Source of the DNA: Auricularia sp. M13
Taxonomy: Eukaryota; Basidiomycota; Agaricomycetes; Auriculariales; Auriculariaceae
Assembly (NCBI GenBank): GCA_037042915.1
Contig: CM073203.1
Location: 3,152,105-3,216,104 of the forward strand
Reading direction: 5' to 3'
Length of the DNA stretch: 64,000 nt
A model generated the notes under the pieces. The model ran no database searches. It was not told the origin of the DNA and saw nothing but the letters and a program-made list of their open reading frames with translations. The position numbers and the translations under genes are program-made. Shown piece after piece: positions 1,871-64,000 of the stretch. Numbering within the stretch: position 1 is the first letter of the stretch; each line of letters opens with the position of its first letter.

Positions 1871-2900
1871 TTGCGGACGCACGGATGCTACAGCACCGAG
1901 CGCGACTGCCCCAGTCGGGGTCAATGGCTTGCGGATGAACAGCTGCGTCTACCTCTCGACTATTGCCTGGATATCTGCTGCTTCCCGCTCGACTGTTTGC
2001 TGACGGCGGGCTTTGCGAGCGGCGCCACTGATGCCCTGCACCTGTTACCGACTGCCACGACGCCTCCTCTCTATGATTTCCACTGTACGGACTGCACATC
2101 TGCATACGATGCGGCCGTGTATGGACGTTACGCCGCGGCCGGCGGACGGCGACATCAATGCCGCGAGTGTTGGCGTTATTGTAAATGCCTTCCCGTCTGC
2201 TCTACTTGAAGACTTTGACAACCACGGTGGACCGCCCCCCTTCGTCGGAGACAGCTACGATGCCATGCTCGTCTTCAGGGATGCCGGCGCCGTTCCCGGT
2301 CCGAACGATGACTACTGTGACGCCATTCCGCCTCCCACGACCAATGCGCCACCGTTTCCGCCACCCACAACGAGCGCCTCCCCCCGAACTTCCGGCCAAG
2401 CACCATGTGCGTCCGCACCCGCCAATTCCATTTCCAACCCAGTTTCCCTCGTCCGCATCTAATGTTCCTCCGGCTCCATCTACAACTCTGCCCACGCCGC
2501 ACACTCCTACAACCGAGCCTTTTCCTCCGTGGCCACCTTCGTCTTCGTTCCTCACGCCCTCGATCCCCACTGTCGCGCCGTCTGCACCTATCTCTAATTA
2601 TCCAAGAGCTTCACGCAAAGGCCAGCACGCGCGCCCGCTCAGATCATCGGCCTATTTGCCAGTGTGCTCGTCCTCCTGGGCATCGTCTGCGGTATCTTTA
2701 TTTACAGACTCATCGCCCGCACCGGTCCCACGCTCCTCCCACGCTGAAGTCACCGGTCAGACTCGACTCGGAGCTGGGTACTCAGCCTGCGCGGGATGAA
2801 CCAGACGGGGGACGTTCTCCGGTTCGCTGTACCAGCGTAGGCGCTGGTTTTCAGAGTGCGGTGAGGACGGGGTTTGAGGAGGAGGTGGTGATGGTGTAGA
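1871..2900 (+). pseudogene. Decayed single-pass membrane protein gene, paralogue of the 9.1-10.4 kb gene
   Basis: Three parts align with the minus-strand gene at 9.1-10.4 kb. They are a Cys-containing outer domain (about 2040-2330), a Pro/Thr/Ser-rich stalk (about 2460-2590) and a membrane segment beginning AQIIGLFASVLVLL (about 2640-2735) followed by a basic flank and a tail with SWVLSLRG. The parts do not share one frame. The outer domain and membrane segment are in one frame, with a stop at 2460-2462, while the stalk is open in another. A stop follows the membrane segment, and a run of five G at 2807-2811 shifts the tail relative to the paralogue (removing one G restores TGTFSGSLY, against TGTFAGSLY). 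Several independent lesions argue for a pseudogene rather than unusual introns. The function of the family is unknown; the shape suggests a surface or sensor protein. Confidence 0.6.
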
Positions 2901-3097
2901 CCGAGGCGGAACTTGGAGGGTGCTTTCAGTATCGTTGTATTCGGACGCGTATCGTGAGATGGCGCAGGATCTTTGAGCGCCCGACTGCGCACATAACAAC
3001 TGTGAGATGACATGGCACAGCCGTTGCTCTAAACATTCTCCTCCATATCTGTATCCGCGTTGCAGACTACTTCGTCGAACGGCAAGGCGCTCTTGAT

Positions 3098-3558
3098 GGT
3101 GAACTAGGCCCCCGGCTTATGCCATCTGAGCCTTCATCCAGGAAGCTGCCCATGTGTGGAGTACCAAAATCGCCAATCTCGGCGGCAGATGTGGAGTTTT
3201 GGATGAAACATCGGGTCTTTCCGGATGTTGCCGATAAGTCCGAAGGCTCTCAGACTGCTAGCAACTTCCCTGATAGTTTAAGCTGCATGAACGAGCATTG
3301 GAAATTGTAAATTTAAAGCATATATAGATGCTGAGCCCATTATTTCTCAAAAGTTTACTCTCCATGATGTTTTGCTTGTCATGATAGCATACTCGTTGCC
3401 CAAATTGGGTCGCTGGTGTGGAGTTTTGGATGAGACATTACTCCCAATTGGGTCCACACGTGTGGACTTTTGGATGGGACGTTGAGCCTCAAAAGTGCCG
3501 TCATGTGTGGAGCTTTGGATGAATGATCTATAGGAATAAGCCGGGGGCCTGGTGAACT
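3098..3558. mobile_element. hAT-like MITE with 8-bp target-site duplication
   Basis: The element is 3106-3550 (445 bp). Its ends are perfect 15-bp inverted repeats, AGGCCCCCGGCTTAT and its complement. The flanks 3098-3105 and 3551-3558 are the same 8 bases, GGTGAACT. An 8-bp duplication is the hallmark of hAT transposition. Inside are four direct copies of a TGTGGAGTTTTGGATGA-like motif (about 3190, 3416, 3461, 3502), matching the subterminal transposase-binding repeats known from hAT elements. It encodes no transposase, so it would be non-autonomous. Confidence 0.8.
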
Positions 3559-4054
3559 AGGACAGAGGTGATCGACCACAGAGATATTCCAGCTCTAATT
3601 GCAGGCAAATATGCCGCTATGTATCTGTTTCTCAGGCGTACAAGGAACCGGGGGAAGCTTCGAAGCGCAGGTTGGAGCGCAGGTTGGCCGGGGTAGAGAC
3701 TCGGAGTTAAACGCCACATGGCGGAGTTTGGAAGAACACGCGCTCTTTGCTCTCGACGCTCGACACAAGCTAGCGCTTCCCACATCGCGCGCACACGCGC
3801 AAATTCCCTCGTGCGGGTCAGGAACAGATTTTCGGCCGCGCGAATCTTCACGGTGCTTGAACGCCGTGCTCAGCAGGAGCTCCCTGGCGGTGCACATTCG
3901 CTCCGGGCGCGCTACAACGAAATTCACGCCATTCCATGCTGATGAAATCGTGCGTTTTGCACTTTTAATTATTGCTGAACCGTAGCAACTCACGATCGGC
4001 CTTTCCTTGAGGATCACTGCAATGATTCATGGATCACCGATCCGCATGCTCGGG
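3559..4054. other. No recognisable gene
   Basis: Two overlapping open frames on opposite strands cover about 3595-4017, but neither shows a domain, a plausible start context or a splice pattern. Nothing else is recognised. Confidence 0.4.
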
Positions 4055-11437: not shown

Positions 11438-11446
11438 ATTTCACGG

Positions 11447-12206
11447 CAAAAATCTGTTTCCTCACGTTCAATTTCCCATCCCACACGTTGACTTTCCCTT
11501 CCTGCACGATCTTTGTAATTACCCTTCTTACACGTCTCTACATACCCTTCCTGCACGATCTTTATGCCTTCCTGCACGCGCAGTATGCCTTCCCACACGT
11601 CCATTATTACCCTTCCCACACGGTCCAATAACCCTTCTGACACGCTCCAATAACCCTTCTAACACGTCCTTATAACCCTTCCTACACGCTGGTATTACCC
11701 TTCTTACACGTCCTTATAACCCTTCCTGCACGTTCTAGTATCCCTTCCTGCACGCTCCCAGGGAGAACTCTAGTACACATCAAAGGAGTGCTCAGAAAAT
11801 TCTGGAAACTGGATGACAAATACCCATAATCCAAAAGAAAAATATTGGGATACTTACCGTAAACCCTGGATGCTGTGCTTGATTTGATATTGAGCATTCT
11901 TTCCTTTTTGGACGCACATGTCAGACGTCAAACTGTACAGCACCAGAACCAGACCCCCATAAATCTTGGTGAGCTTTTCATAAATCATAAGAATGCTAAC
12001 AAAAAATATTTACAAAGTTTCGGAGTCCAAATGCTATTTCCCAATTTGGTATGATGTCGCTTATCCGCTCACAGTGCGGCACACACAGTGCCACGGTGGA
12101 TCGGTGATAAATTGAGTTTGGGGTCTTGAAAATCTCGATCATCATTACTAAACATTATGATGCAGAAAGGTACAATTATTTCATTGAAAACGAGCTTCAA
12201 ATCACA
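11447..12206 (+). repeat. Left terminal inverted repeat of the MULE element
   Basis: Pairs with 18,867-19,578. The outer ~310 bases are a degenerate tandem array of a ~20-bp unit containing CCCTTCCTGCACG. The inner ~440 bases are a unique sequence nearly identical to the other arm. The match stops at GCTTCAAATCACA (about 12,194-12,206). Confidence 0.9.
11480..11765. repeat. Subterminal minisatellite array, left arm
   Basis: Roughly 14-16 units of 19-23 bp with consensus CCCTTCYNRCACG plus a short variable spacer such as TCCTTATAA or CTCCAATAA. The mirror array is at 19,313-19,560. Repeated short subterminal motifs in DNA transposons usually serve as transposase-binding sites. This is not a CRISPR: units are too short and lack unique spacers. 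Confidence 0.85.
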
Positions 12207-12599
12207 GTTTCACTCAATAAACTTGCAAAAAATGCATTAAATTCGCGAAAATGCTGTTTATTTAGGTTCCACAGTTTCAGACTCCGAAACCTTGCATCTT
12301 GGCTCTGTACCACCATCATCACCGCCTGTGCTGGTAATTATGTTCCTTTCTCTCTGTTCTCTTCCTTCACTAGTTGTGTTTGATTCTTCATCATTTTCTG
12401 GTCATTCTCGTCATCATTCCTATATACATTGTGATTATTATGATGATTCCTAGGAATCATTGAAATAATCATGATATATATTGTCTACTGCACTCTCTGG
12501 TGTGCCTTTTGCCGCCTAGAGCACGAGTTTGGCGCTAGGACGAGTCAGTGGTGTCGCTTGTTCGTCCAAAGCGTTCAAATATGTAGATCAGTTGAATGA

Positions 12600-12960
12600 T
12601 GACCAGAATGATACCTGGTATCATGATTATCATGATGACGATCATTGTGATGATCATTGTCGTCGACAATAGTACTCATCATCATCATCAATGATGATAC
12701 TTGGTATCATCATCATCTATGATGATGATCCCAGGAATCATCTTAATAATCATGATGAATATCATTATTGATTCCGATATTTAATATTAAATTAATTGCA
12801 ATAAAATAATTATAATTATTTCTTTTAATTGCAATAAAATAATTATAATTATTTCTTTTAATTCGTCTTCAAATCAATTATTCAATTTATATTCAAACAC
12901 GCTAATATCATTTTTGCAGAATCCTTTTGTGTTGTTTCTTTTCTACGCTTCCTTACAAGA
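12600..12960. promoter_or_regulatory. AT-rich upstream region of the transposase gene with palindromes and a 33-bp tandem repeat
   Basis: Between about 12,600 and 12,780 lie several palindromes built on ATGATACC/GGTATCAT within a GAT/ATC-rich tract. Then a 33-bp unit starting AATTGCAATAAAATAATT is repeated twice without a gap (12,794-12,826 and 12,827-12,859). The transposase ATG follows at 12,961. This is probably the promoter region, but no defined box can be assigned. Confidence 0.45.
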
Positions 12961-15900
12961 ATGTCTGACAAAACCGGTGGACGAGGGGGACGACCTCCTC
13001 GCCCACGTGCTCAACTGCCTTCGTCTGCTCCCCGTGGGCGTGCTTCGGCTACTACCTCCGCCAATGCTTCTACCGCTTCGTCTGTAAATCCATCTCGTGC
13101 TCCTTCGACCGATCGTGGCTCTCTTGGCTCTGATTTGCCTCCTGCAACTCCCATTCCCGACGAAACACCTGCTACTCTCAGCCTGTTGGATTTTCACCGC
13201 TCTGGCCGTAGGGCGCTCCTTCCCACCACCCAGGCAGCTCTTGAGCCTGCATCGCGCAGTGTTTCCCGCACACGCTCATCGCACTCTGCGTCTCGCACAC
13301 GTAACAGTCGCAAGCTCCACAAAATTTCCCATGAGGAAAAGGATGGTCTTTCGTGGACCTGTGTTGGAAAGTTTCCTCTTGCTCGACTCTGGCATCAGAT
13401 TGAAGCTTTGGTGTGTAATCCATGTTTTCGTTCTTTCTAATCATTATTTATCATGTTACCAGCCACACGACTACGTTAATCCAGAATATGCGCATCATCC
13501 GGAGCTTGATGTGCACTTTGTCGGTCATCCTCTTGATCGACCACAAGATATCCGTGCACGTGACTTCATGGTTTCGTGGAAGAACGAGCGTCCAGCATTT
13601 GTGAAGCCAGACGAACCTGTCTTTCGTGTTTCCTACAATTGCCTAGGCAGTTGCGCTTGGCCCGAAGACACTGCCGAGGAAGCAGATGCAGAGCTTCATG
13701 ACGAGGAAGCTGCTCCAGAGGATGCTCCCTCAGGCACTACACCTGTAGATGAATCTGGACCCCCACGCGGCGTCGGCGTGCTCGCATTTTATGCCCGTGC
13801 AAAGGACGCCTCCAGGTTTGTAAATGTCTATGTGCAGAATATTTTTACTCATAGATCATATAGGTGGAGATTCTGGCTGGAAATCTCGAGTTGGCTTCAA
13901 TTTGGACCCAAGCGCTTGAGGACCACCATCATCCTGCTGAGAAGCACAGTGTAAAATCCCACTATGTTCGCCAGCAGATCATGGACTGTGCATCTTTGGG
14001 ACTTACTGCAGGCATCATCAAGCAGCGTAAGTACCGGAAAATACCATGTATGATCAATGATGCTAAATGTTGGCTTAGGCCTCATGACAACCTACCAGAC
14101 TTACAAGATTTTGCCACGCCGCCAGCATACTGCAAGACAAGTTGCTGATATTGTTCAAGGATGGCGTAGGCATGGGCGTGCCGACCATGATCCCATACGT
14201 GCTATTGGCACTCTGGCAGAGAACAAGCCTCAGTCCATCTACATGTGAGTAGTGAATAGCCCACATGTGTGGGTTTTAATCTATATTACAGGTTCAAGAA
14301 TCACGATCCTGATGCGACGCCTCCCACCAAATTCTCTGTCGCCATTTCTGATGCTTTCGCCATGGAGAACCTGATCATCAATGCTCCAGAGCTTGGCTGC
14401 GCTCTTGATTCGTCCTGGAGAAACAAGAATGAAAATCGAGCGCCTCTTACTTTCCTGGTTACTGTCAATAAGGAGACGCATTGTCTGCCTGGTGAGTTCT
14501 ATTTGATCAGGTGCGCTCTAATGCTTATAAAAAATTAAGGCGCAGCAATGCTCTCTGAGGATGTTCAAGCAGAAACCTTGGAGGAATTCCTGAGGGAAAC
14601 GAAGGCTCGCATTGAGGATTATGCTTTGAAAATCTCATCTGGTCAGAGGGATGCTCCTTTGCTGAGCTCGATACTAACAGTTTTATTAGGAAATGTCGAA
14701 GTTCAGCACAAGGATGCTGCAGACATCAAGAAGCTGCAAGCATCTGCGCTGTACATTGTGGCGCATGGGTGGAAACCTGCCTGGGTCATGATTGACAAAA
14801 GCCGAGCTGAAGCAAATGCCATTCGTGCAGGCACGATTATTCAAATCTTGCAGAAGGTCATCACACTAACTGAAGTCTAGTTTGGCCAGATATGATAATC
14901 CGCCTGTGCCAGTTCCACGTTATCCAGGCCATTCTAAGGTTTGACGGCGAAGGATCCCCAGGCGAGCGACCTTCGCTGTCTGTGCCACAAAAGCGACTTC
15001 TTTGTGTTGCTTTTCGCTCCTTGCAGCGTTGCGATTCAATGGATAAATGGCAGGCAGCTATTGGAACCTTCAAAAAGCAGCTCGAGTCCATTGTTCTAGA
15101 TGCGCAACTACGCCTGAAAACCTGGAGATACTTTGAGAAGAATTGGTTTGTTTCGTTCTGGCGAGGTATGAATTATTTTCCATAACACAATGTCACTAAA
15201 ATCCTGCAGATATGTGGACAGACATTGGCTTGCCTGCAGGGCACAACCGCGATGGAATGCTCAATACAAACAATTGGATTGAGCGTTCTTTCAAGACGTT
15301 TGATCAGTTGTTCCTGCACTGTCGTGCAAACAAAAGGTAGGGGTCTAAATTTTAACTATGGACAGGATTTCTGAACATCATTCTAGGCTTGATCGTCTTG
15401 TAATCATCCTGGCCAACGAGTTCTTCCCTTTCTTCCAGCAGTGGGAGCCGAAGGGACCTGTTCGCAACACCGAATTGCTAGGCGAGATCCAAGAAGGTCA
15501 CTATATTTGGAGCGAGCCCCATATGCTACGGAAACTTGATGGTGACGCTTGGAGGGTCTCAGAGTTTAAGTAAATGGGTTTGAGTGAATCAATGGTCATC
15601 AGGCTAATATTTTATTCCAGATCTGAGGAGCGGTTTATGGTGACCAAGTCCCAAAGCAGCACTCTACGTTGTAGCTGCAAGGCATTTGACCAGACGGGCA
15701 GATCATGCTGCCATATCTGGGCAATCCGCCTGCTGTTGGGGAATGGCGATGCCAAGAGCTGGGTTGGTACGTATACTCCAGATAGTCATGATGCACAGCT
15801 ATATCTAATAAAATGGTAGCGAATGAGTCTGTGCGCGAGATGCAAGGGGCCACAAAGCAGGGCTTCAAAGCGTCTGCTCCAAAGCCACCTCCCGGAAGCA

Positions 15901-18734
15901 AGGCGCCCCCTCGTCCTTTGCGAGATAGCAAGATTGCAGAGACTCTTGACCTTGTGGTTGAAGACGCAGCCAAGAACACCACTTTTGATTCGCTCGCACG
16001 TCGCCTGCTTCACAAGATGGAAGAGCAGGACTCCGATTCAGATACATCTATGGCTAATGCTCCCCTACACTTTGACGCTCAACAGCCTGAGCTTCATCCT
16101 CGAGCTCAATTTGGTATGCACATTTCTAATAACGATCACATGCACAAAAACTAATGCTATTTGAGGAGGATCTACTCCTGGCCATCCAGGGAAAATCAAG
16201 CCAATGCAGTCCTGGCGAAGTGAATCTGGGAAGCAGAGCTCTTCTCATCTTCGATTTTCAGAGCGTCCTGGGCGTCCAGCAGGCCCACAAAACAGCCTGC
16301 TTCCTGCCAAGACGATTGCAGAGCAATCACAGGTATGCTTTATTCCATAGTGTCTCCAATTGATATATTCGTCTAATATATTTATGACGAAGGAGGGTCA
16401 GGGAAAACCTGTTGACAAAGGAAAAGGAAAGCAGCTGGACATGGTGTGTGAACTCAGTGCAGTTGGATATGTATTCTTAACATTTCTTGGTAACAGACGG
16501 ACAACTCCTCATTCGAAACTCCAATGGACAGCTTCCAGATTGTTCGCATTCTCTCGGCCTTCCTCAGCTGCCTCAGCGAAGAGCTGGAACTTGGGATACT
16601 ATTTGTGCCTGGCGAGTACAATGCTGAAAAGCAGGCTGCCGAGTTTGCCAAGCTTCGACAGGATCCAGGCGCACCACAGGTATAAATTCATTGATTTGAT
16701 GCGGGCATCAGTGTCTGATGATAATGTAGAACCTCGTAGGGTTGTGGGAAACTCTTCATCTCGCCTTTCACAAGCAGGCCATCAAGCGAATTATTTTCTT
16801 CCATTTCAGTGTGGCTTCGCAGCACTGGTACCTCTGCGAATGGAGGCCCAAGTCGCCTGTGGTTCCCTTCGTCTATGGTGTTCAACATCAGCACAACGTG
16901 CAAGATGGAGATCGTGCAACACAGCTCACCATTATGCGCCACTGGATGCCAGTCGATGATCCAGCCCAGGTTTGTTTTAGCACGTCTTCATGCAACACAC
17001 ATTCTCATCAAGGTCGTAGCCGATGTACAAACAATTCGCACTCCCTGCATCTGGACAGGAAGATTGTGAAAGTGCACTTCTAATGGCTGGGCTGGCGTTC
17101 TTTATTCTCTTCAACAAGCGTCCTTATGGATCGACAGCCAATGTCTTCGGTGACATCGCACCTCAAACAATCATCTCAGCTTTCCAGCAACTTCTTACTG
17201 CTTTCCCTGCTTCGCCAATCTCAAAATCCGAAATGACTACCTGGATTGCACCACTTGGACTCCAGCTTCCAGAGGCTTTCCCCGACCTCTTGCGCCCACA
17301 GAGCAGGTACTTTTTGTGATGGGAGACTACGAGGCTCTGGATATGGTACGTTGCAAAATCGGTCTATCATATGTACTCATGTCTTCTAGGAAATTGATGA
17401 ATCCGCTGCAAAAGCGATCATCCATGTGGAAATGGTACAAATACGTCTCTATACTATCTACACCAATTAACCTTCCTTCAGAAGGACGTCGTCACCAATC
17501 CGGTTGTGCCAGTCACTGCTACACAGACTGACATTCACACTGTTCATGAGGTTTGTACTCGCATCCAACGCTTATCAGGCACTAACTTGATATAAGCTCC
17601 TTGCCTGGACAGGAGACCAGTCAACTCGACTTCTTACAATTGGGCGCCAGTTCATCACTGGGCGAGAAGTCTCCATTCTTCGCCGTGATGATGCCTGGTT
17701 CAATGATGAGATCATCAATGCTTGGGCAGTCCTACACGGTGGCAGTTTTGACAAAGGAAGCTGGCACAATGTGTCTTCCTTCTTTTTTGCAAAGCTGATG
17801 GAATACATCAAGATCAGAGACGATGGTGTAGAGACTTTTGCCGCTTTACCAGCACAGGAGAGACAGAGACGTCAAGTTTTGTTTTCTGCTCAGACTACTC
17901 AACTGCACAAGTGGTTCAAAAAGGTGAGTGTATTCTTTAGGAGCACCAGAATTTTAAATTGATTTGATCAGTGCGACACTCTGTTTGCCTTGTCTCACCT
18001 GAACATTCCAATCAACATCAACAATAATCACTGGGCGTTGGCAGTCATCGATTTTCAGAAGCACACCATTTCTTATATGGACTCTCTCTCTACCCATTCC
18101 AAGGATAGAGGTGATGTCAAAAAAACACACTCTCGCGACACAGTTATGCTGGTGCGTCATGCTTACCTGCTGCCCCTCATATATGAAGCTGAAATTCTTA
18201 TAGCACCTCCTGGACTACCTCGAAGAATATGCGATATATAAACGCATGGAGTTTCCACAGCGTGCTGCTGATTTCCCCTTCAAGCGTTCCCAATGGATTG
18301 TGCACCTACCAGTAAGCTGAACATACAGGGTTAACCTGTTTGCCTATTTGCTAAATACTTCCCAACAGGCAGTGCAGCAGCAGAATGATGGCCATAGTTG
18401 TGGCCCATTCACCTGCTTTTTCCTTGAAAAGCTGTCTACCCAGACACGGCCTTCGTCTTGGAAGCAATTTGAGATCAATCCAGTTGAATACCGGCACACC
18501 ATTGCAGAGCAATTGGTCGCATTCCACATCAAAAACAAAAATGTTATGCAAGTAGAGTGAGTTGTTGGATTAAGAACAGAATTAGGCACTAAAAAATCTA
18601 AACATAGGTCTCCACCACCCTCAACACCTCCACAAATCCATCAATCTCAGGCGCAGATGCCGCACACACCACCAACTCCACACACCGCACAGCAGCCCAA
18701 ACGAGCACGCCGTGAAGGTGTTTCGTATCGTTGA
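12961..18734 (+). CDS. MULE transposase with SWIM finger and C-terminal Ulp1-like (C48) protease
   Basis: Exons that join in frame: 12961-13410, 13463-13819, 13864-14026, 14079-14244, 14292-14491, 14540-14641, 14690-14824, 14881-15165, 15210-15336, 15387-15569, 15621-15766, 15820-16113, 16166-16332, 16393-16443, 16497-16679, 16730-16969; then, after an unresolved stretch, to 17345, 17390-17434, 17482-17550, 17597-17923, 17972-18151, 18204-18311, 18369-18556 and 18608-18734. DDE residues are D418 (ALDSSW), D~515 (MIDKSRAE) and E~644 (NNWIERSFK), with LCQFH between. The SWIM finger is C740-S-C742...C752-C-H754. The C-terminal part has a Ulp1-like entry DDAWFNDEIINAW and triad His (NNNHWAL, codon 18029), Asp (YMDSL, 18080) and Cys (QQNDGHSCGPF, 18399). 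The transposase moves the element; Ulp1 domains cleave SUMO-like modifiers. Between 16,970 and 17,306 two frames look coding and I could not connect them, so this copy may carry a frameshift or the region may be two genes. Confidence 0.8.
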
Positions 18735-18858
18735 AAGCTGATGACCTGTAATACTCTCTGTTCTTGTACTCATCAGAATATCTGTGGCTCAGAAAATGAT
18801 GTGAATGTACTGTGAAGCCTCACATCGTGTTCGCTTGCACAGATTATAGGAAAACTGC

Positions 18859-18864
18859 AATAAA
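18859..18864 (+). promoter_or_regulatory. Polyadenylation-like signal of the transposase gene
   Basis: AATAAA lies 125 bases after the stop codon at 18,732-18,734 and immediately before the inner edge of the right inverted repeat. Confidence 0.4.
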
Positions 18865-18866
18865 AT

Positions 18867-19578
18867 TGTGATTTGAAGCTCGTTTTCAATGAAATAATTG
18901 TACCTTTCTGCATCATAATGTTTAGTAATGATGATCGAGATTTTCAAGACCCCAAACTCAATTTATCACCGATCCACCGTGGCACTGTGTGTGCCGCACT
19001 GTGAGCGGATAAGCGACATCATACCAAATTGGGAAATAGCATTTGGACTCCGAAACTTTGTAAATATTTTTTGTTAGCATTCTTATGATTTATGAAAAGC
19101 TCACCAAGATTTATGGGGGTCTGGTTCTGGTGCTGTACAGTTTGACGTCTGACATGTGCGTCCAAAAAGGAAAGAATGCTCAATATCAAATCAAGCACAG
19201 CATCCAGGGTTACGGTAAGTATCCCAATATTTTTCTTTTGGATTATGGGTATTTGTCATCCAGTTTCCAGAATTTTCTGAGCACTCCTTTGATGTGTACT
19301 AGAGTTCTCCCTGGGAGCGTGCAGGAAGGGATACTAGAACGTGCAGGAAGGGTTATAAGGACGTGTAAGAAGGGTAATACCAGCGTGTAGGAAGGGTTAT
19401 AAGGACGTGTTAGAAGGGTTATTGGAGCGTGTAGGAAGGCATACTGCACGTGTAGGAAGGGATAAAGATCGTGCGGGAAGGGATAAAGATCGTGCAGGAA
19501 GGGTGACTGGAGACGTGTAAGATGGGTAATCGGCCAGCGTGTGGGAAGGGAAGATGAACGTGCACAAACCTATCTTGC
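18867..19578 (-). repeat. Right terminal inverted repeat of the MULE element
   Basis: Reverse complement of 11,447-12,206. The inner part is almost identical to the left arm. The outer minisatellite (19,313-19,560) has fewer and partly different units, so the array has changed in unit number since the arms were last equal. Confidence 0.9.
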
Positions 19579-19587
19579 ATTTCACGG

Positions 19588-40100: not shown

Positions 40101-43100
40101 TTACTTTGCGGTCCAGATAATTCACTCACATTGCTGTAACGCTAGAGCCCTTCTCGCACGCGTTCCGAGCGGATGCCAGGTTGTGCAGAATGCCGCGCCT
40201 GATGCATCGAAGGTGCGTCTGCTTCTGCAGCATACCGCGATCAGCTCGCGCTAACGCCACCGCGCTCAGCTCTCTTCGGGCTCGCTCGCGCGGTTCATCA
40301 GCGTCCCAACCGGCGCGCTGCGTACTGAAGAGGCGATATAGACCTCTGGCTTGCGTGCACGCCGCCGAGAGGGCCGCTGGGGTACAACTTCGATCGCACC
40401 CGCGGATGCTCTGGAGTCCGCTTCCCCGCGAGAATGAGGTGCACACGACGCCGGCGCTTGCGCGGTGCCCGCGAATATACGGCTTGGGCTTGCCGCGCGC
40501 CGGCCGCTCGTGATTCCGCTGCACCGTCGCCCTCCCCGCGTCCAACTCTGGCGGCACCTCCGTGTACCGCGCTCGTGCAACGCCACTGCCGCACGTCTCC
40601 TCACGGGCTGCGGGCGCGCGCTTTCCGAATGCAACGCTCAAGCCGTGCCCCCGCTATGGACTGCGGGGTGCTCGAGATAAAGGTGTACTGGTGCGCCCTC
40701 AGTTTTACTGCCCGCTCGGCACCGTGCTCATTGCGGCTTCGTCCAGCGTGCAGCTTGTGCGCTAGACACCCGTGCATGTCAGCGACTGTCAACCTCGGAG
40801 ATGCCCTAGCGCGCGCTCTGCGCCCGCGGATGCACGCGCGCCGTGTAATTCCGTCGACGCGCCCGAAGGAGAACGAGCAGGCCGACTCCACACCCGTCGT
40901 TCCGGACGCACTTCGCTCTGGATTGACCACTTTCCGTCCCCTGAGCGAGCAATGCTGGTCCAATATGGGTGCAATAACCTGATGTGTAAAGTGGTTTAAC
41001 CAGCACGTCTCTAAGTAAGACCGTCAGCCAATCTGTGTGAGTTGTAGACGGGCAGACGGCGGGTGTAGCAGATGACGAGAGCGAGGTAGCGAGGGTGAGC
41101 GTCGTCCCTGCGGAAGACACTAGGCTCCTTTATAGTCGTTCTGCTGGATAATTTCGCGGCCCGAGAACTCATTGCCAACGCTGCGCTGGGATGACGTTCG
41201 CGCAATCTGGGTGCAGTAGAAATTACGCCGCTCCGCTCGATTATGAGGCATCATCTTTGAGACCCCCCCAATCTCATCATCAGTCATCTCTTTGAACTGA
41301 AATCATAAACTGTACAGTCTCCGCAAAGGTGACCTCTGACCAACGGCTGCCCGGGATCGGACCGAGGCGCCCGCTCCGCTTTTCTGCTTTCGACCACGAC
41401 GCGCGCGCTGTGCCGTCCGTTCACCACCAGCCGGCTGAGCCTGCGCACGCGATTGTCTGTGCGGGTAGGCTTGCGCACTTTAATCAGAGTCCAAGCTGAC
41501 GCGTTTCGAGCAGGACTCGCGTTCATGATTTTGCTGAGCTCGGACGCCGCTTGGATGGTATTATGCAATAACCGATGGTGTGTGCTCTACATCGACGCGC
41601 GCTTGGGTGGGTCTGACTCCTTGGCTACCTTGTAGGCTCTACCGAGACGCGCGGCGCCGTGCACGGCGTCTGACCTGTGCGTTGCCCCCGCCGTGCCGCT
41701 CGTCGGCTACCGGCGCTGAATTCACAGCCTAAAAACGTACGTACTCGTGCATTGCGTTGTGCGAGTTAGAACGTGTCAGGATGCTGACTGCTCGTTTTAT
41801 ATAATAGTCTGTCGGACCTCGTCGTGTCGGACGGTCAAACGAGCTTATGCCGCTTCACCGACACCTCGCTGCTGTCACTACAGCAGCCCCAAGCGCGGTC
41901 TCGTAGAGGTCGCCGCTCAGTCTACCCCGGCGTCGCCCACAACCACCGCAAGCTCGTGCGCGAAGCAAGAGACATGCGCTGCATGCGCAGTCTGCATATG
42001 CCGTTCAGCTCGCGCGGCAACGAACTTCTACACCGCTACAGACCGCATCGCATGTAGCGCCGCCACGCGGCGCCTACGCAGGTGTCGTGGCGCTGCCATT
42101 CAGCATCAGCCTCGTCCGCGCCGGCGCACGTTTCGAAGGCCATGGCAGCGCCGCCGTCGATAACACCCGTTGGGGCTTCACCCCGTCCCTCGGTGCTACC
42201 TACGACGCGGCATGCTCACCACGCGCCCGCCTCTCGCGCAATAACGACGGTGCCGTCATTGGCCGCGCGCGCGTGCAACTTCCCACGGCGCGCAACGACA
42301 TCGCGGCGCGCAGGAGGCGATGCAGTCTCCAGCGCTGTGCGTAACCCCGGCGCGCGTGTCGCTGCCCCGTCCACGGTGCTGAACGTCGGCATTGGCGCTG
42401 CCCCCTCGCTCGCTCCGTCCATGCTCAGTTCGACCGTCGACAAGGGCCCTGCCCGCGCGCGAGTACCCTCGCATCGTGCTTCCTCTTCTCCACCTCTGTC
42501 TCGCGCGCCCGTGCTACCCGGCTGGCAGCTGCTCAGAAAGAGTGCGCCGTGCTGCAAACCACAGCCGCGCGCGCTCCTGCTGTGTGCCGCGCTCTATCTG
42601 CTGGTCCGCGCTTGCCTCTGAATCCAGCGCCGTTGGATCGAACGACGCGGATGTACTTTCGCCCAGCGCCCGGCAGCCAACCGCGGGTTGGATGGCACGT
42701 GCGCGCGCGCGACGTGCTCGTTCGTCAACATCGCGACCAACCAGCCCCATCGAGAGCTTCTTCAACGGCGCGCGCCGTCCCCGCGCCCAGCAGCATCAAC
42801 TTCATCGCCAACCGCGGCGCCTGCATTATAACACGCTCGCTCGTCACCAGCGCCGTCGTCGCTGGAGTACAGACAACTGCTGCTGGCGACGACCCGAACT
42901 AGTGCGCCCTGGCACTGCGGTGCGCTGTGCGCTCCCCATCCGCTGGTCACGCAAGGTCGAGCGCGCGCACACATAGGCGTCCACGGTCCAGGCGCGACCG
43001 CCAGCGCGCGGGCGGTGACGTTGGCTCCAGAAGGCCGTACTGGTCCGGAGTCGTGACTGCGTCGCCGACTCTGCGAACCACAACCGCAACCTGCGCGCCG

Positions 43101-59100: not shown

Positions 59101-62100
59101 GGGCGCTGTTGGTGAGCCCGTAATGCGCGCGTGCAAGGACGCGCGGCTTGGCTCTTGAATAGTTTCGAGACAAAGTGCGTTCGCGGCCCGAAACTCCGCT
59201 GCGCGCTCTTGGCTCTGACCGCCATGTACCAAGTTCAACACGCGACGACGCGGGCGCCGAGTGCACGCAGCCGCTGCTGCTGCGTCTTTCCGCGAAATGT
59301 CAGTGCGGCTTGTCTTTGCCGCGTTCCTGCGTGCTCACTGGTATCGGACAGAGTCGGCGAGCACAACGGTCGTTCTGCAGCGCGTCAGGTGGTGTATAGT
59401 GGCTCAAAGCTTCTCCGTTGACGCGTCAGGTTGTGCAGAATGCCGCGCCTGATGCATCGAAGGTGCGTCTGCTTCTGCAGCATACCGCGATCAGCTCGCG
59501 CTAACGCCACCGCGCTCAGCTCTCTTCGGGCTCGCTCGCGCGGTTCATCAACGTCCCAACCGGCGCGCTGCGCACTGAAGAGGCGATATAGACCTCTGGC
59601 TTGCGTGCACGCCGCCGAGAGGGCCGCTGGGGTACAACTTCGATCGCACCCGCGGATGCTCTGGAGTCCGCTTCCCCGCGAGAATGAGGTGCACACGACG
59701 CCGGCGCTTGCGCGGTGCCCGCGAATATACGGCTTGGGCTTGCCGCGCGCCGGCCGCTCGTGATTCCGCTGCACCGTCGCCCTCCCCGCGTTCAACTCTG
59801 GCGGCACCTCCGTGTACCGCGCTCGTGCAACGCCACTGCCGCACGTCTCCTCACGGGCTGCGGGCGCGCGCTTTCCGAATGCAACGCTCAAGCCGTGCCC
59901 CCGCTATGGACTGCGGGCTGCTCGAGATAAAGGTGTACTGGTGCGCCCTTAGTTTTACTGCCCGCTCGGCACTGTGCTCATTGCGGCTTCGTCCAGCGTG
60001 CAGCTTGTGCGCTAGACACCCGTGCGTGTCAGCGACTGTCGACCTCGGCGATGCCCTAGCGCGCGCTCTGCGCCCGCGGATGCACGCACGCCGTGTAATT
60101 CCGTCGACGCGCCCGAAGGAGAACGAGCAGGCCGACTCCACACCCGTCGTTCCGGACGCACTTCGCTCTGGATTGACCACTTTCCGTCCCCTGAGCGAGC
60201 AATGCTGGTCCAATATGGGTGCAATAACCTGATGTGTAAAGTGGTTTAACCAGCACGTCTCCAAGTAAGACCGTCAGCCAATCTGTGTGAGTTGTAGACG
60301 GGCAGACGGCGGGTGTAGCAGATGACGAGAGCGAGGTAGCGAGGGTGAGCGTCGTCCCTGCGGAAGACACTAGGCTCCTTTATAGTCGTTCTGCTGGATA
60401 ATTTCGCGGCCCGAGAACTCATTGCCAACGCTGCGCTGGGATGACGTTCGCGCAATCTGGGTGCAGTAGAAATCACGCCGCTCCGCTCGATTATGAGGCA
60501 TCATCTTTGAGACCCCCCAATCTCATCATCAGTCATCTCTTTGAACTGAAACCATAAACTGTACAGTCGCCGCAAAGGTGACCTCTGACCAACAGCTGCC
60601 CGGGATCGGACCGAGGCGCCCGCTCCGCTTTTCTGCTTTCGACCACGACGCGCGCGCTGTGCCGTCCGTTCACCACCAGCCGGCTGAGCCTGCGCACGCG
60701 ATTGTCTGTGCGGGTAGGCTTGCGCACTTTAATCAGAGTCCAAGCTGACGCGTTTCGAGCAGGACTCGCGCTCATGATTTTGCTGAGCTCGGACGCCGCC
60801 TGGATGGTATTATGCAATTACCGTTGGTGTGTGCTCTACATCGACGCGCGCTTGGGTGGGTCTGACTCCTTGGCTGCCTTGTAGGCTCTACCGAGACGCG
60901 CGGCGCCGTGCACGGCGTCTGACCTGTGCGTTGCCCCCGCCGTGCCGCTCGTCGTCTACCGGCGCTGAATTCACAGCCTAAAAACGTACGTACTCGTGCA
61001 TTGCGTTGTGCGAGTCAGAACGTGTCAGGATGCTCATTGCTCGTTTTATATAATCGTCTGTCGGACCTCGTCGTGTCGGACGGTCAAACGAGCTTATGCC
61101 GCTTCACCGACACCCCGCTGCTGTCACTACAGCAGCCCCAAGCGCGGCCTCGTCGATCAGCCTACCCCGGCGTCGCCCACAACCACCGCGAGCTCGTGCG
61201 CGAAGCAAGAGATACACACCGCTCGCGCAATGCGCATATGCCGTTCAGTTCGCGCGGCAACGAACTTCTACACCACTACAGACCGCATCGCATGTAGCGC
61301 CGCCACGCGGCGCCTACGCAGGTGTCGTGGCGCTGCCATTCAGCATCAGCCTCGTCGGCGCCGGCGCACGTTTCGAAGGCCATCGCAGCGCCGCCGTCGA
61401 TAACACCCGTTGGGGCTGCACCCCGTCCCTCTGTGCTGCCTACGACGCGGCGTGCCCACCACGCGCGCGTCTTTCGCGCAATAACAAGGTCGTCGTCGCT
61501 CAGCCTCGCGCTTGGCCGCGCGCGTGTCACTTCGTACTGCCCGCAACGACGGAGTCTGCGGCGACGTGCGCAGCCGCGAGGGCTCGCTCCGCCGCCGCGT
61601 CAACAGAGCTGAACGTCGGCATTGGCGCTGCCCCCTCGCTCGCTCCGTCCATGGCCAGTTCGACCGTCGACAAGGGCCCTGCCCGCGCCAGAGTACGCTC
61701 ACATCCCTCTTCCGCTTCTCCGCCTCCGTCTCGCGCGCCCGTGCTGCCCGGCTGGCAGCGGGTCGGGAAGAGTGCGCCGTGCCGTAAACCACTAAGGCGG
61801 AGCGCCTAAAAAATCTGGGTGGTGTGCCGCTACCGTCTACCGCGCTGGTCCGCGCTCGCCTCTGAATCCAGCACCGTTGGATCGAACGATGCGGATGCAC
61901 TTTCGCCCAGCGCTCGGCAGCCAACCGCGGGTTGGATGGCGCGTGCGCCCGCGCGGCGTGCTCGTTCGTCAACATCGTGACCAACCAGTCCATCGAGTGC
62001 TTCTTCAACGGCGCGCGCCGTCCCCGCGCCCAGCAGCATCAACTTCATCGCCGACCGCGGCGCCTGCATTATAACACGCTCGCTCGTCACCAGCGCCGTC

Positions 62101-63956: not shown

Positions 63957-64000
63957 GCTCCAGCAAACCAGCAAACCAGCAAACCAGCAAACCAGCAAAT
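63957..64000. repeat. CCAGCAAA microsatellite at the window edge
   Basis: About five direct copies of the 8-bp unit CCAGCAAA. The array continues to, and probably past, the end of the window. Confidence 0.85.

What the first reader, a model, noticed from the sequence alone, without database searches (positions are those of the whole stretch)
11438..19587. A fungal Mutator-like transposon whose transposase frame runs on into a Ulp1-type deSUMOylase
Seen: an 8,132-bp element with long inverted repeats, a perfect 9-bp target duplication, DDE residues, a SWIM finger and a C-terminal His-Asp-Cys Ulp1-like triad, linked through an exon chain that stays in phase except for one ~330-bp stretch. Known: Ulp1-like domains occur in some plant MULE groups. 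Inference: in this fungus the element may carry its own SUMO protease, perhaps to counter SUMO-dependent silencing or to process transposase complexes. I am not aware of a well-described fungal family of this build, but could not search.
Basis: partly seen in the sequence, partly recalled or inferred. Interest (0 to 1): 0.8.

Follow-up and report, generated by a model that had tools for sequence, protein, structure and literature searches.

The report
Fungal jumping gene with SUMO protease
A recently active fungal transposon carries, in the same predicted protein as its DNA-cutting enzyme, a protease of the kind that strips SUMO tags from other proteins; a diverged sister element in the same genome has the same build, so the joint enzyme is old and maintained.

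Summary
Confirmed, and stronger than reported. Window 11447-19578 is a complete 8,132-bp Mutator-like element (MULE) with ~0.7-kb inverted repeats and a perfect 9-bp target duplication. Two more full copies in the genome, each with its own 9-bp duplication, differ from it by 0 substitutions and 9 and 7 differences of 1-2 nt in length. One 24-exon gene predicts 1,526-1,528 aa: MULE transposase (28.4 bits, cut-off 27.6), SWIM finger (19.8, cut-off 19.6), an unknown middle region, and Ulp1/C48 protease (82 bits) with intact His-Asp-Gln-Cys. A sister element (50% protein identity) has the same order, 20 of 23 introns in place, and pN well below pS in both halves. The protease resembles the host's cellular Ulp1 and SENP1 more than a C48 domain lying beside a KDZ transposase. 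Ulp1-bearing MULEs are known in plants and some animals; the rows I saw of ten literature searches name none in fungi, but Repbase and fungal genomes were out of reach. New variant of a known kind; SUMO-protease function is inferred.

The parts
11438..11446 (.). left target-site duplication ATTTCACGG
   Evidence: 10 of 10 copies with both ends in hand have a perfect 9-bp duplication
11447..12210 (+). left terminal inverted repeat (about 764 bp)
11447..11760 (+). subterminal array of 13 units like TAACCCTTCCTACACG, spaced 21-26 bp, mostly 21-22; probable transposase binding sites (inferred)
   Evidence: degenerate pattern chosen by eye
12961..18731 (+). single 24-exon gene, 1,526 aa (1,528 aa with a GC-AG intron at 14831-14880)
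   Evidence: shuffle control
14292..15304 (+). MULE DDE transposase core (D 14407, D 14794, E 15281)
   Evidence: PF10551 28.4 bits, cut-off 27.6
15667..15720 (+). SWIM zinc finger CxCx9CxH
   Evidence: PF04434 19.8 bits, cut-off 19.6
16497..17345 (+). middle region of unknown type, conserved in the sister element (36% over 271 columns; 39% in the alignment)
   Evidence: no Pfam match
17020..17345 (+). exon that appears out of phase in the window copy; one T-run is a base longer in copy L032
17597..18556 (+). Ulp1/Peptidase_C48 domain: WFNDEIIN, H 18029, D 18080, Q 18381, C 18399
   Evidence: PF02902 82.3 bits, E 5.8e-23; SENP1 and Ulp1 structures
18863..19578 (-). right terminal inverted repeat, with 11 array units
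19579..19587 (.). right target-site duplication ATTTCACGG

Best explanation
An autonomous, recently mobile Mutator-like DNA transposon of a fungus. Its single gene makes a transposase (DDE core plus SWIM finger) that runs on, in one polypeptide, into a Ulp1/SENP-type cysteine protease. Likely working: the transposase part binds the 21-22-bp repeat arrays in the inverted repeats and moves the element, leaving 9-bp duplications on insertion (duplications shown, binding inferred). The tethered protease removes SUMO at the element's ends, from the transposase itself or from host repair and chromatin proteins gathered there, favouring excision or reinsertion (inferred). The protease module resembles the host's cellular Ulp1, so it was probably acquired from a Ulp1-type gene before the two families here split (inferred).
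For: Ends, duplications and copies. Same protein in a diverged element (C4:4330758-4341941, 11,184 bp, TSD GAATGCGAG, inverted repeats 98% alike) with the same domain order, 50% identity (DDE 67%, Ulp1 46%), 20 of 23 introns shared, pN 0.23 against pS 0.82 in the DDE part and pN 0.39 against pS 0.86 in the Ulp1 part. Pfam MULE, SWIM and C48 over cut-off for the window element; C48 81.9 bits in the sister. Catalytic set conserved in both families; nearest solved structures SENP1 (E 1.5e-14), then SENP2 and Ulp1. Closer to the host Ulp1 (hhalign E 1e-18, 39% identity) than to the one KDZ-linked C48 compared (E 2e-4, 26%).
Against: No transcript, protein or activity data. MULE and SWIM matches pass their cut-offs by less than one bit, and only for the splice-refined protein; in the sister both stay below (MULE 26.5 against 27.6, SWIM 12.9 against 19.6). 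The genome-wide PF10551 search did not list the element itself among its 7 matches, and profile comparison with one other MULE of this genome gave nothing. By the places of the differences none of the three assembled copies is open throughout: the window copy has the one frame break, and L031 and L032 differ from it at 6 exon places each, one of the latter being the base that restores that frame. Differences without any substitution, 11 of 16 at runs of three or more of one base, point to sequencing error but do not prove it. SUMO specificity is from homology; related folds act on ubiquitin or NEDD8.
Confidence: 0.65

Rival explanations
1. The protease is an anti-silencing device: it strips SUMO from host silencing factors at the element's chromatin so that the element stays expressed, as VANC-type proteins act against DNA methylation in plants.
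For: C48 domains are repeatedly tied to transposons in this genome: 20 of 40 C48 matches lie 2.0-2.5 kb downstream of a KDZ transposase match on the same strand. Ulp1-carrying Vandal elements of Arabidopsis are reported to induce hypomethylation of their own kind (PMC13317346, passages).
Against: Nothing here shows that silencing in this fungus needs SUMO; [quoted passage not shown]
Confidence: 0.25
2. The protease acts on the element's own polypeptide, cutting transposase from protease.
For: One long polypeptide with a less conserved linker (39% identity).
Against: The element's protein has Gly-Gly only at residues 6, 9 and 1267, none in the stretch between SWIM and Ulp1 domain, so no such site is shared with the sister; that Ulp1-type enzymes cut after Gly-Gly is recalled, not from a call.
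Confidence: 0.06
3. Two neighbouring genes inside one element, a transposase and a separate Ulp1-like protease.
For: In the window copy and in L031 the frame breaks at exon 17020-17345.
Against: Copy L032 has the base that keeps the frame there, and the sister element reads through; spliced models have no stop between the domains in either family and share introns across the linker. The models were chosen to avoid stops, which weakens this last point; the shuffles show how far chance goes.
Confidence: 0.04
4. The Ulp1 part is a captured passenger without function.
For: MULEs often carry host gene pieces (PMC6446971, abstract).
Against: Catalytic residues intact and pN well under pS between two families long diverged.
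Confidence: 0.03

Closest known systems
KI-MULEs / KIU genes of Arabidopsis (Vandal group)
   Same: Mutator-like element with an Ulp1/C48 domain
   Different: Arabidopsis elements are non-TIR MULEs with the Ulp1 domain in reverse orientation to mudrA (PMC2528002 and PMC13317346, passages); here long inverted repeats and one fused gene
Ulp1-containing MULEs of melon, rice and grapevine
   Same: Ulp1 domain in MULEs, in melon also in TIR-MULEs; direct and reverse orientations described
   Different: plant hosts; fusion and transposase clade not compared here (papers seen as passages only)
Mutator elements of hydra and lancelet with Ulp1; Ginger1 transposases with C-terminal Ulp1 or OTU
   Same: for Ginger1, protease C-terminal to a DDE transposase, the nearest in build that I saw described; for the Mutator ones, an Ulp1 domain in Mutator transposases
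   Different: animal hosts; Ginger1 core is Gypsy-integrase-like (PMC2836005, passages)
Fungal MULE groups (Hop, Mutyl, Phantom-Ca)
   Same: fungal Mutator superfamily, 9-10-bp duplications where given
   Different: in the rows that I saw of a table of MULE groups no fungal group lists a protease; 'protease', 'peptidase' and 'C48' occur 0 times in the main text (PMC6446971, passages)
KDZ transposons with a C48 domain in this same genome
   Same: C48 domain downstream of the transposase, same strand
   Different: other transposase family; the one C48 compared is far from the one here
CryptonF/CryptonS of oomycetes with C48 peptidase
   Same: mobile element with a C48 peptidase
   Different: tyrosine recombinase, oomycete hosts (PMC3212892, passages)

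Membership tests
Mutator-like elements (MULE) | 8-11-bp, usually 9-bp target duplication | tested here: met
   perfect 9 bp in 10 of 10 copies with both ends in hand; also in the sister element
Mutator-like elements (MULE) | long terminal inverted repeats (common, not universal) | tested here: met
   sister 98% over about 0.92 kb
Mutator-like elements (MULE) | MULE DDE domain PF10551 | tested here: met
Mutator-like elements (MULE) | SWIM finger after the DDE core (frequent) | tested here: met
   19.8 bits against 19.6; sister 12.9, below, but the C-C-C-H residues are conserved
Mutator-like elements (MULE) | place within the MULE transposase tree | not tested
   no reference transposase set held; one other MULE of this genome gave no profile match
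Peptidase C48 / Ulp1 | PF02902 catalytic domain over cut-off | tested here: met
   82.3 bits, cut-off 20.7; sister 81.9
Peptidase C48 / Ulp1 | His-Asp-Gln-Cys active site | tested here: met
   aligned to SENP1; conserved in sister; the role of these residues is recalled
Peptidase C48 / Ulp1 | SUMO isopeptidase activity | not testable with these tools
   needs an enzyme assay
KDZ transposons | KDZ transposase domain PF18758 | tested here: not met
   not among the Pfam matches of the protein; none of the listed KDZ places coincides with the three copies or the sister (list cut)
KI-MULE / Vandal | no terminal inverted repeats, Ulp1 domain in reverse orientation | tested here: not met
   long inverted repeats, same strand, one gene

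The most novel reading that the evidence does not exclude
In this fungus at least two unrelated DNA transposon superfamilies (MULE and KDZ) independently took up Ulp1-like proteases because SUMO on chromatin or on transposition proteins is a main brake on DNA transposons; the MULE fusion tethers the deSUMOylase to its own ends, a SUMO counterpart of the TET/JBP enzymes that fungal transposons are thought to use against DNA methylation.
Probability: 0.25. Interest if true: 0.8.

Novelty: new variant of a known kind. Interest (0 to 1): 0.55.

Why it matters
Why transposons of plants, animals and oomycetes acquired Ulp1-like proteases is an open question: the review that I saw in passages calls the function unknown in plants, and the Ginger paper offers only a suggestion, help with DNA repair. 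Here is a young fungal element with the protease fused to its transposase, copies with zero substitutions, a diverged sister that shows constraint on both halves, and defined ends with repeat arrays. If the real copies are open, it is a compact system in which active-site mutants can show whether SUMO removal helps excision, insertion or escape from silencing.

Tried and rejected
Two-gene reading: rejected. KDZ membership: rejected. Common origin of the protease with the KDZ-linked C48 domains: not supported (one KDZ-linked sequence compared). Self-cutting at a Gly-Gly in the linker: no such site in the element's linker. Middle region as a second, dead Ulp1-like domain, suggested by eye: no support by profile comparison, no Pfam match. 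Relatives elsewhere: none in IMG/VR (52 pattern matches, 0 confirmed) or GTDB contigs (107 pattern matches, 0 confirmed); those collections are not fungal. Solved structure for the DDE part: 0 matches. Other MULEs of this genome with a protease: by my reading of the lists, the nearest of the 7 PF10551 matches to a C48 match is about 20 kb away; both lists are lower bounds. Structure prediction was not used: the domains are split by introns, so no contiguous DNA gives them. Two papers asked for by identifier were not held. The NCBIfam match to XopD is far under its cut-off (19 against 700 bits) and shows only the shared protease fold. Searches used the right flank of the sister element in the wrong orientation; corrected, exons unaffected.
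Full report
Observation. The element spans 11447-19578 (8,132 bp) between perfect copies of ATTTCACGG. Its inverted repeats are about 0.7 kb: an inner part of 349 nt at 100%, a next part of 243 nt at 97%, and towards the ends an array of 21-22-bp units that varies between the two sides. The left end begins CAAAAATC and the right end, reverse-complemented, GCAAGATA.

Copies. The window is G000:C11:3152105-3216104 of a 52-Mb genome in 14 contigs. A DNA search with the left repeat gave 30 matches. Two further full copies lie at C3:1990517-1998640 and C3:4239774-4247903. Against the window copy they show 0 substitutions and 9 and 7 length differences of 1-2 nt; 11 of these 16 are at runs of three or more of one base. 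Decay would bring substitutions too, so I take most of them as sequencing errors; this is inference. Six of the differences of each copy fall in exons. Seven non-autonomous elements of 3.5-6.1 kb share the ends. All 10 copies with both ends in hand (3 full, 7 non-autonomous) have perfect 9-bp duplications; the partial matches in L036, L037, L040, L041 and L044 were not judged. In none of these 12 loci did a search find a match to the element's protein (E up to 1e-3), so they depend on an autonomous copy.

Gene. A splice model with short introns reads 12961-18731 as one gene. In the window copy, exon 17020-17345 shifts the frame; with the longer T-run of copy L032 the chain stays in phase. With it the score is 253, without it 247; 0 of 60 dinucleotide shuffles reached either (mean 130, maximum 164; 16 of 60 gave no open chain). 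Comparison with the sister element then split off one more intron and moved the edge of another, giving 24 exons and 1,526 aa, or 1,528 aa if a GC-AG intron is used.

Sister element. Searches of the own genome with either half found, apart from the three copies, one place on C4 that encodes both halves (only the best candidates are scored there). The element runs from C4:4330758 to 4341941 (11,184 bp), has inverted repeats 98% alike over about 0.92 kb, and is flanked by GAATGCGAG. Its gene is open over 24 exons and 1,492 aa without any base added. The proteins align end to end: 50% identity over 1,436 columns; N-terminal 400 residues 52%, DDE 67%, SWIM 61%, linker 39%, middle 36%, Ulp1 46%. 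Of 23 introns, 20 share position and phase (17 of 22 at an earlier stage). Synonymous sites look saturated (pS 0.79) while pN is 0.36 overall, 0.23 in the DDE part and 0.39 in the Ulp1 part. Both halves are thus constrained and the fusion predates the split. Some introns of both genes were chosen by hand with the other in view, so the intron count leans towards agreement.

Domains. First Pfam scan: C48 82.3 bits; SWIM 18.2 and MULE 13.8 bits, both under cut-off. With refined splicing MULE reaches 28.4 (cut-off 27.6) and SWIM 19.8 (cut-off 19.6). In the sister MULE stays at 26.5 and SWIM at 12.9, both below, and C48 is 81.9. The genome-wide PF10551 search lists 7 places, not the element. So the MULE call rests on duplications, inverted repeats, the D-D-E and SWIM residues and a marginal profile match together. 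The nearest solved structures of the protease are SENP1, then SENP2 and yeast Ulp1, with bacterial deubiquitinases weaker. The WFNDEIIN stretch and the His, Asp, Gln and Cys positions are conserved in both families. The middle region has no Pfam match and no profile likeness to C48.

Context in the genome. A search for C48 gave 40 matches. Seven belong to the element family. Twenty lie 2,004-2,453 bp downstream, on the same strand, of a KDZ transposase match; two of them are one locus, so 19 loci. One, at C5:1624565, looks like the host's cellular Ulp1. By profile comparison the element's protease is closer to that one (E 1e-18, 39% identity) than to a KDZ-linked one (E 2e-4, 26%). So two transposon superfamilies in this genome seem to carry C48 proteases, probably from separate uptakes; only one KDZ-linked sequence was compared, and I did not show that C48 and KDZ transposase form one gene.

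Inverted-repeat arrays. The element has 13 and 11 units like TAACCCTTCCTACACG at mostly 21-22-bp spacing; the sister has 9 and 8 units like TTACCCTTCTGAAAC at 21-22 bp or multiples (patterns chosen by eye). The families share the core CCCTTC and the spacing, though by DNA search their inverted repeats share only an 82-bp patch at 79%. A spacing of two helical turns suits rows of bound transposase on one face; long MULE repeats are said to hold transposase binding sites (PMC3310237, abstract start in a search listing). This is inference.

Known and new. Ulp1 domains in Mutator elements are recorded for Arabidopsis, maize, rice, melon, hydra and lancelet (PMC2836005, passages) and grapevine (PMC13317346, PMC2528002, passages). 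In a survey of MULE groups, the table rows that I saw name no protease in fungal groups (PMC6446971, passages). A 2025 paper on TET/JBP genes in fungal transposons has 0 occurrences of 'protease', 'C48' or 'SUMO' (PMC12730594; abstract, passages and section 3.2.1). Ten literature searches showed no title or abstract start about a fungal MULE with Ulp1; of each I saw at most the first 10-20 rows. Passages of PMC10799480, PMC8290104, PMC12062965 and PMC12810828 named none either. Repbase, most subscription papers and fungal genome collections were out of reach, so absence from print is not shown. I file it as a new variant of a known kind.

Mechanism. Shown: recent movement, 9-bp duplications, conserved catalytic residues, constraint on the fusion. 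Inferred: SUMO specificity, tethering of the protease to the element's ends, effect on transposition. Favoured: deSUMOylation at the transposition complex; main rival: relief of silencing.

Noticed in passing
G000, e.g. C8:1726988-1730193, C10:3313604-3316832, C1:2668406-2671266: 20 of 40 C48 matches lie 2.0-2.5 kb downstream of a KDZ transposase match on the same strand: KDZ transposons of this fungus seem to carry their own C48 protease.
   Followed up: partly
G000 C9:128559, C2:5118607, C12:225304, C2:3836263, C10:3475674: Further C48 matches in long open frames (352-500 aa) with no KDZ match close upstream; carrier not identified.
   Followed up: no
window 11447-11760 and 19316-19540; sister element ends: Inverted repeats built of 21-22-bp unit arrays with a core shared between two families whose DNA is otherwise diverged.
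   Followed up: partly
G000, 14 element places: 8 of 14 family places lie within 250 kb of a contig end (13% expected; binomial P 1.5e-4; threshold chosen after seeing the data, ends not shown to be telomeres).
   Followed up: partly
non-autonomous element in L033, element coordinates 2077-3671: It holds a foreign 437-aa open frame, followed by a frame that by eye resembles a tyrosine-recombinase end; possibly a nested element.
   Followed up: no
window 12792-12857: Perfect head-to-tail duplication of a 33-bp A+T-rich unit about 100 bp upstream of the predicted start codon.
   Followed up: no
window 41341-41435 and 60590-60684: Two tRNA-Arg (gcg) predictions of equal length on the minus strand, perhaps a duplication.
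   Followed up: no
window 63960-63999: The contig ends in five copies of CCAGCAAA; no TTAGGG or CCCTAA in the last 2 kb.
   Followed up: no
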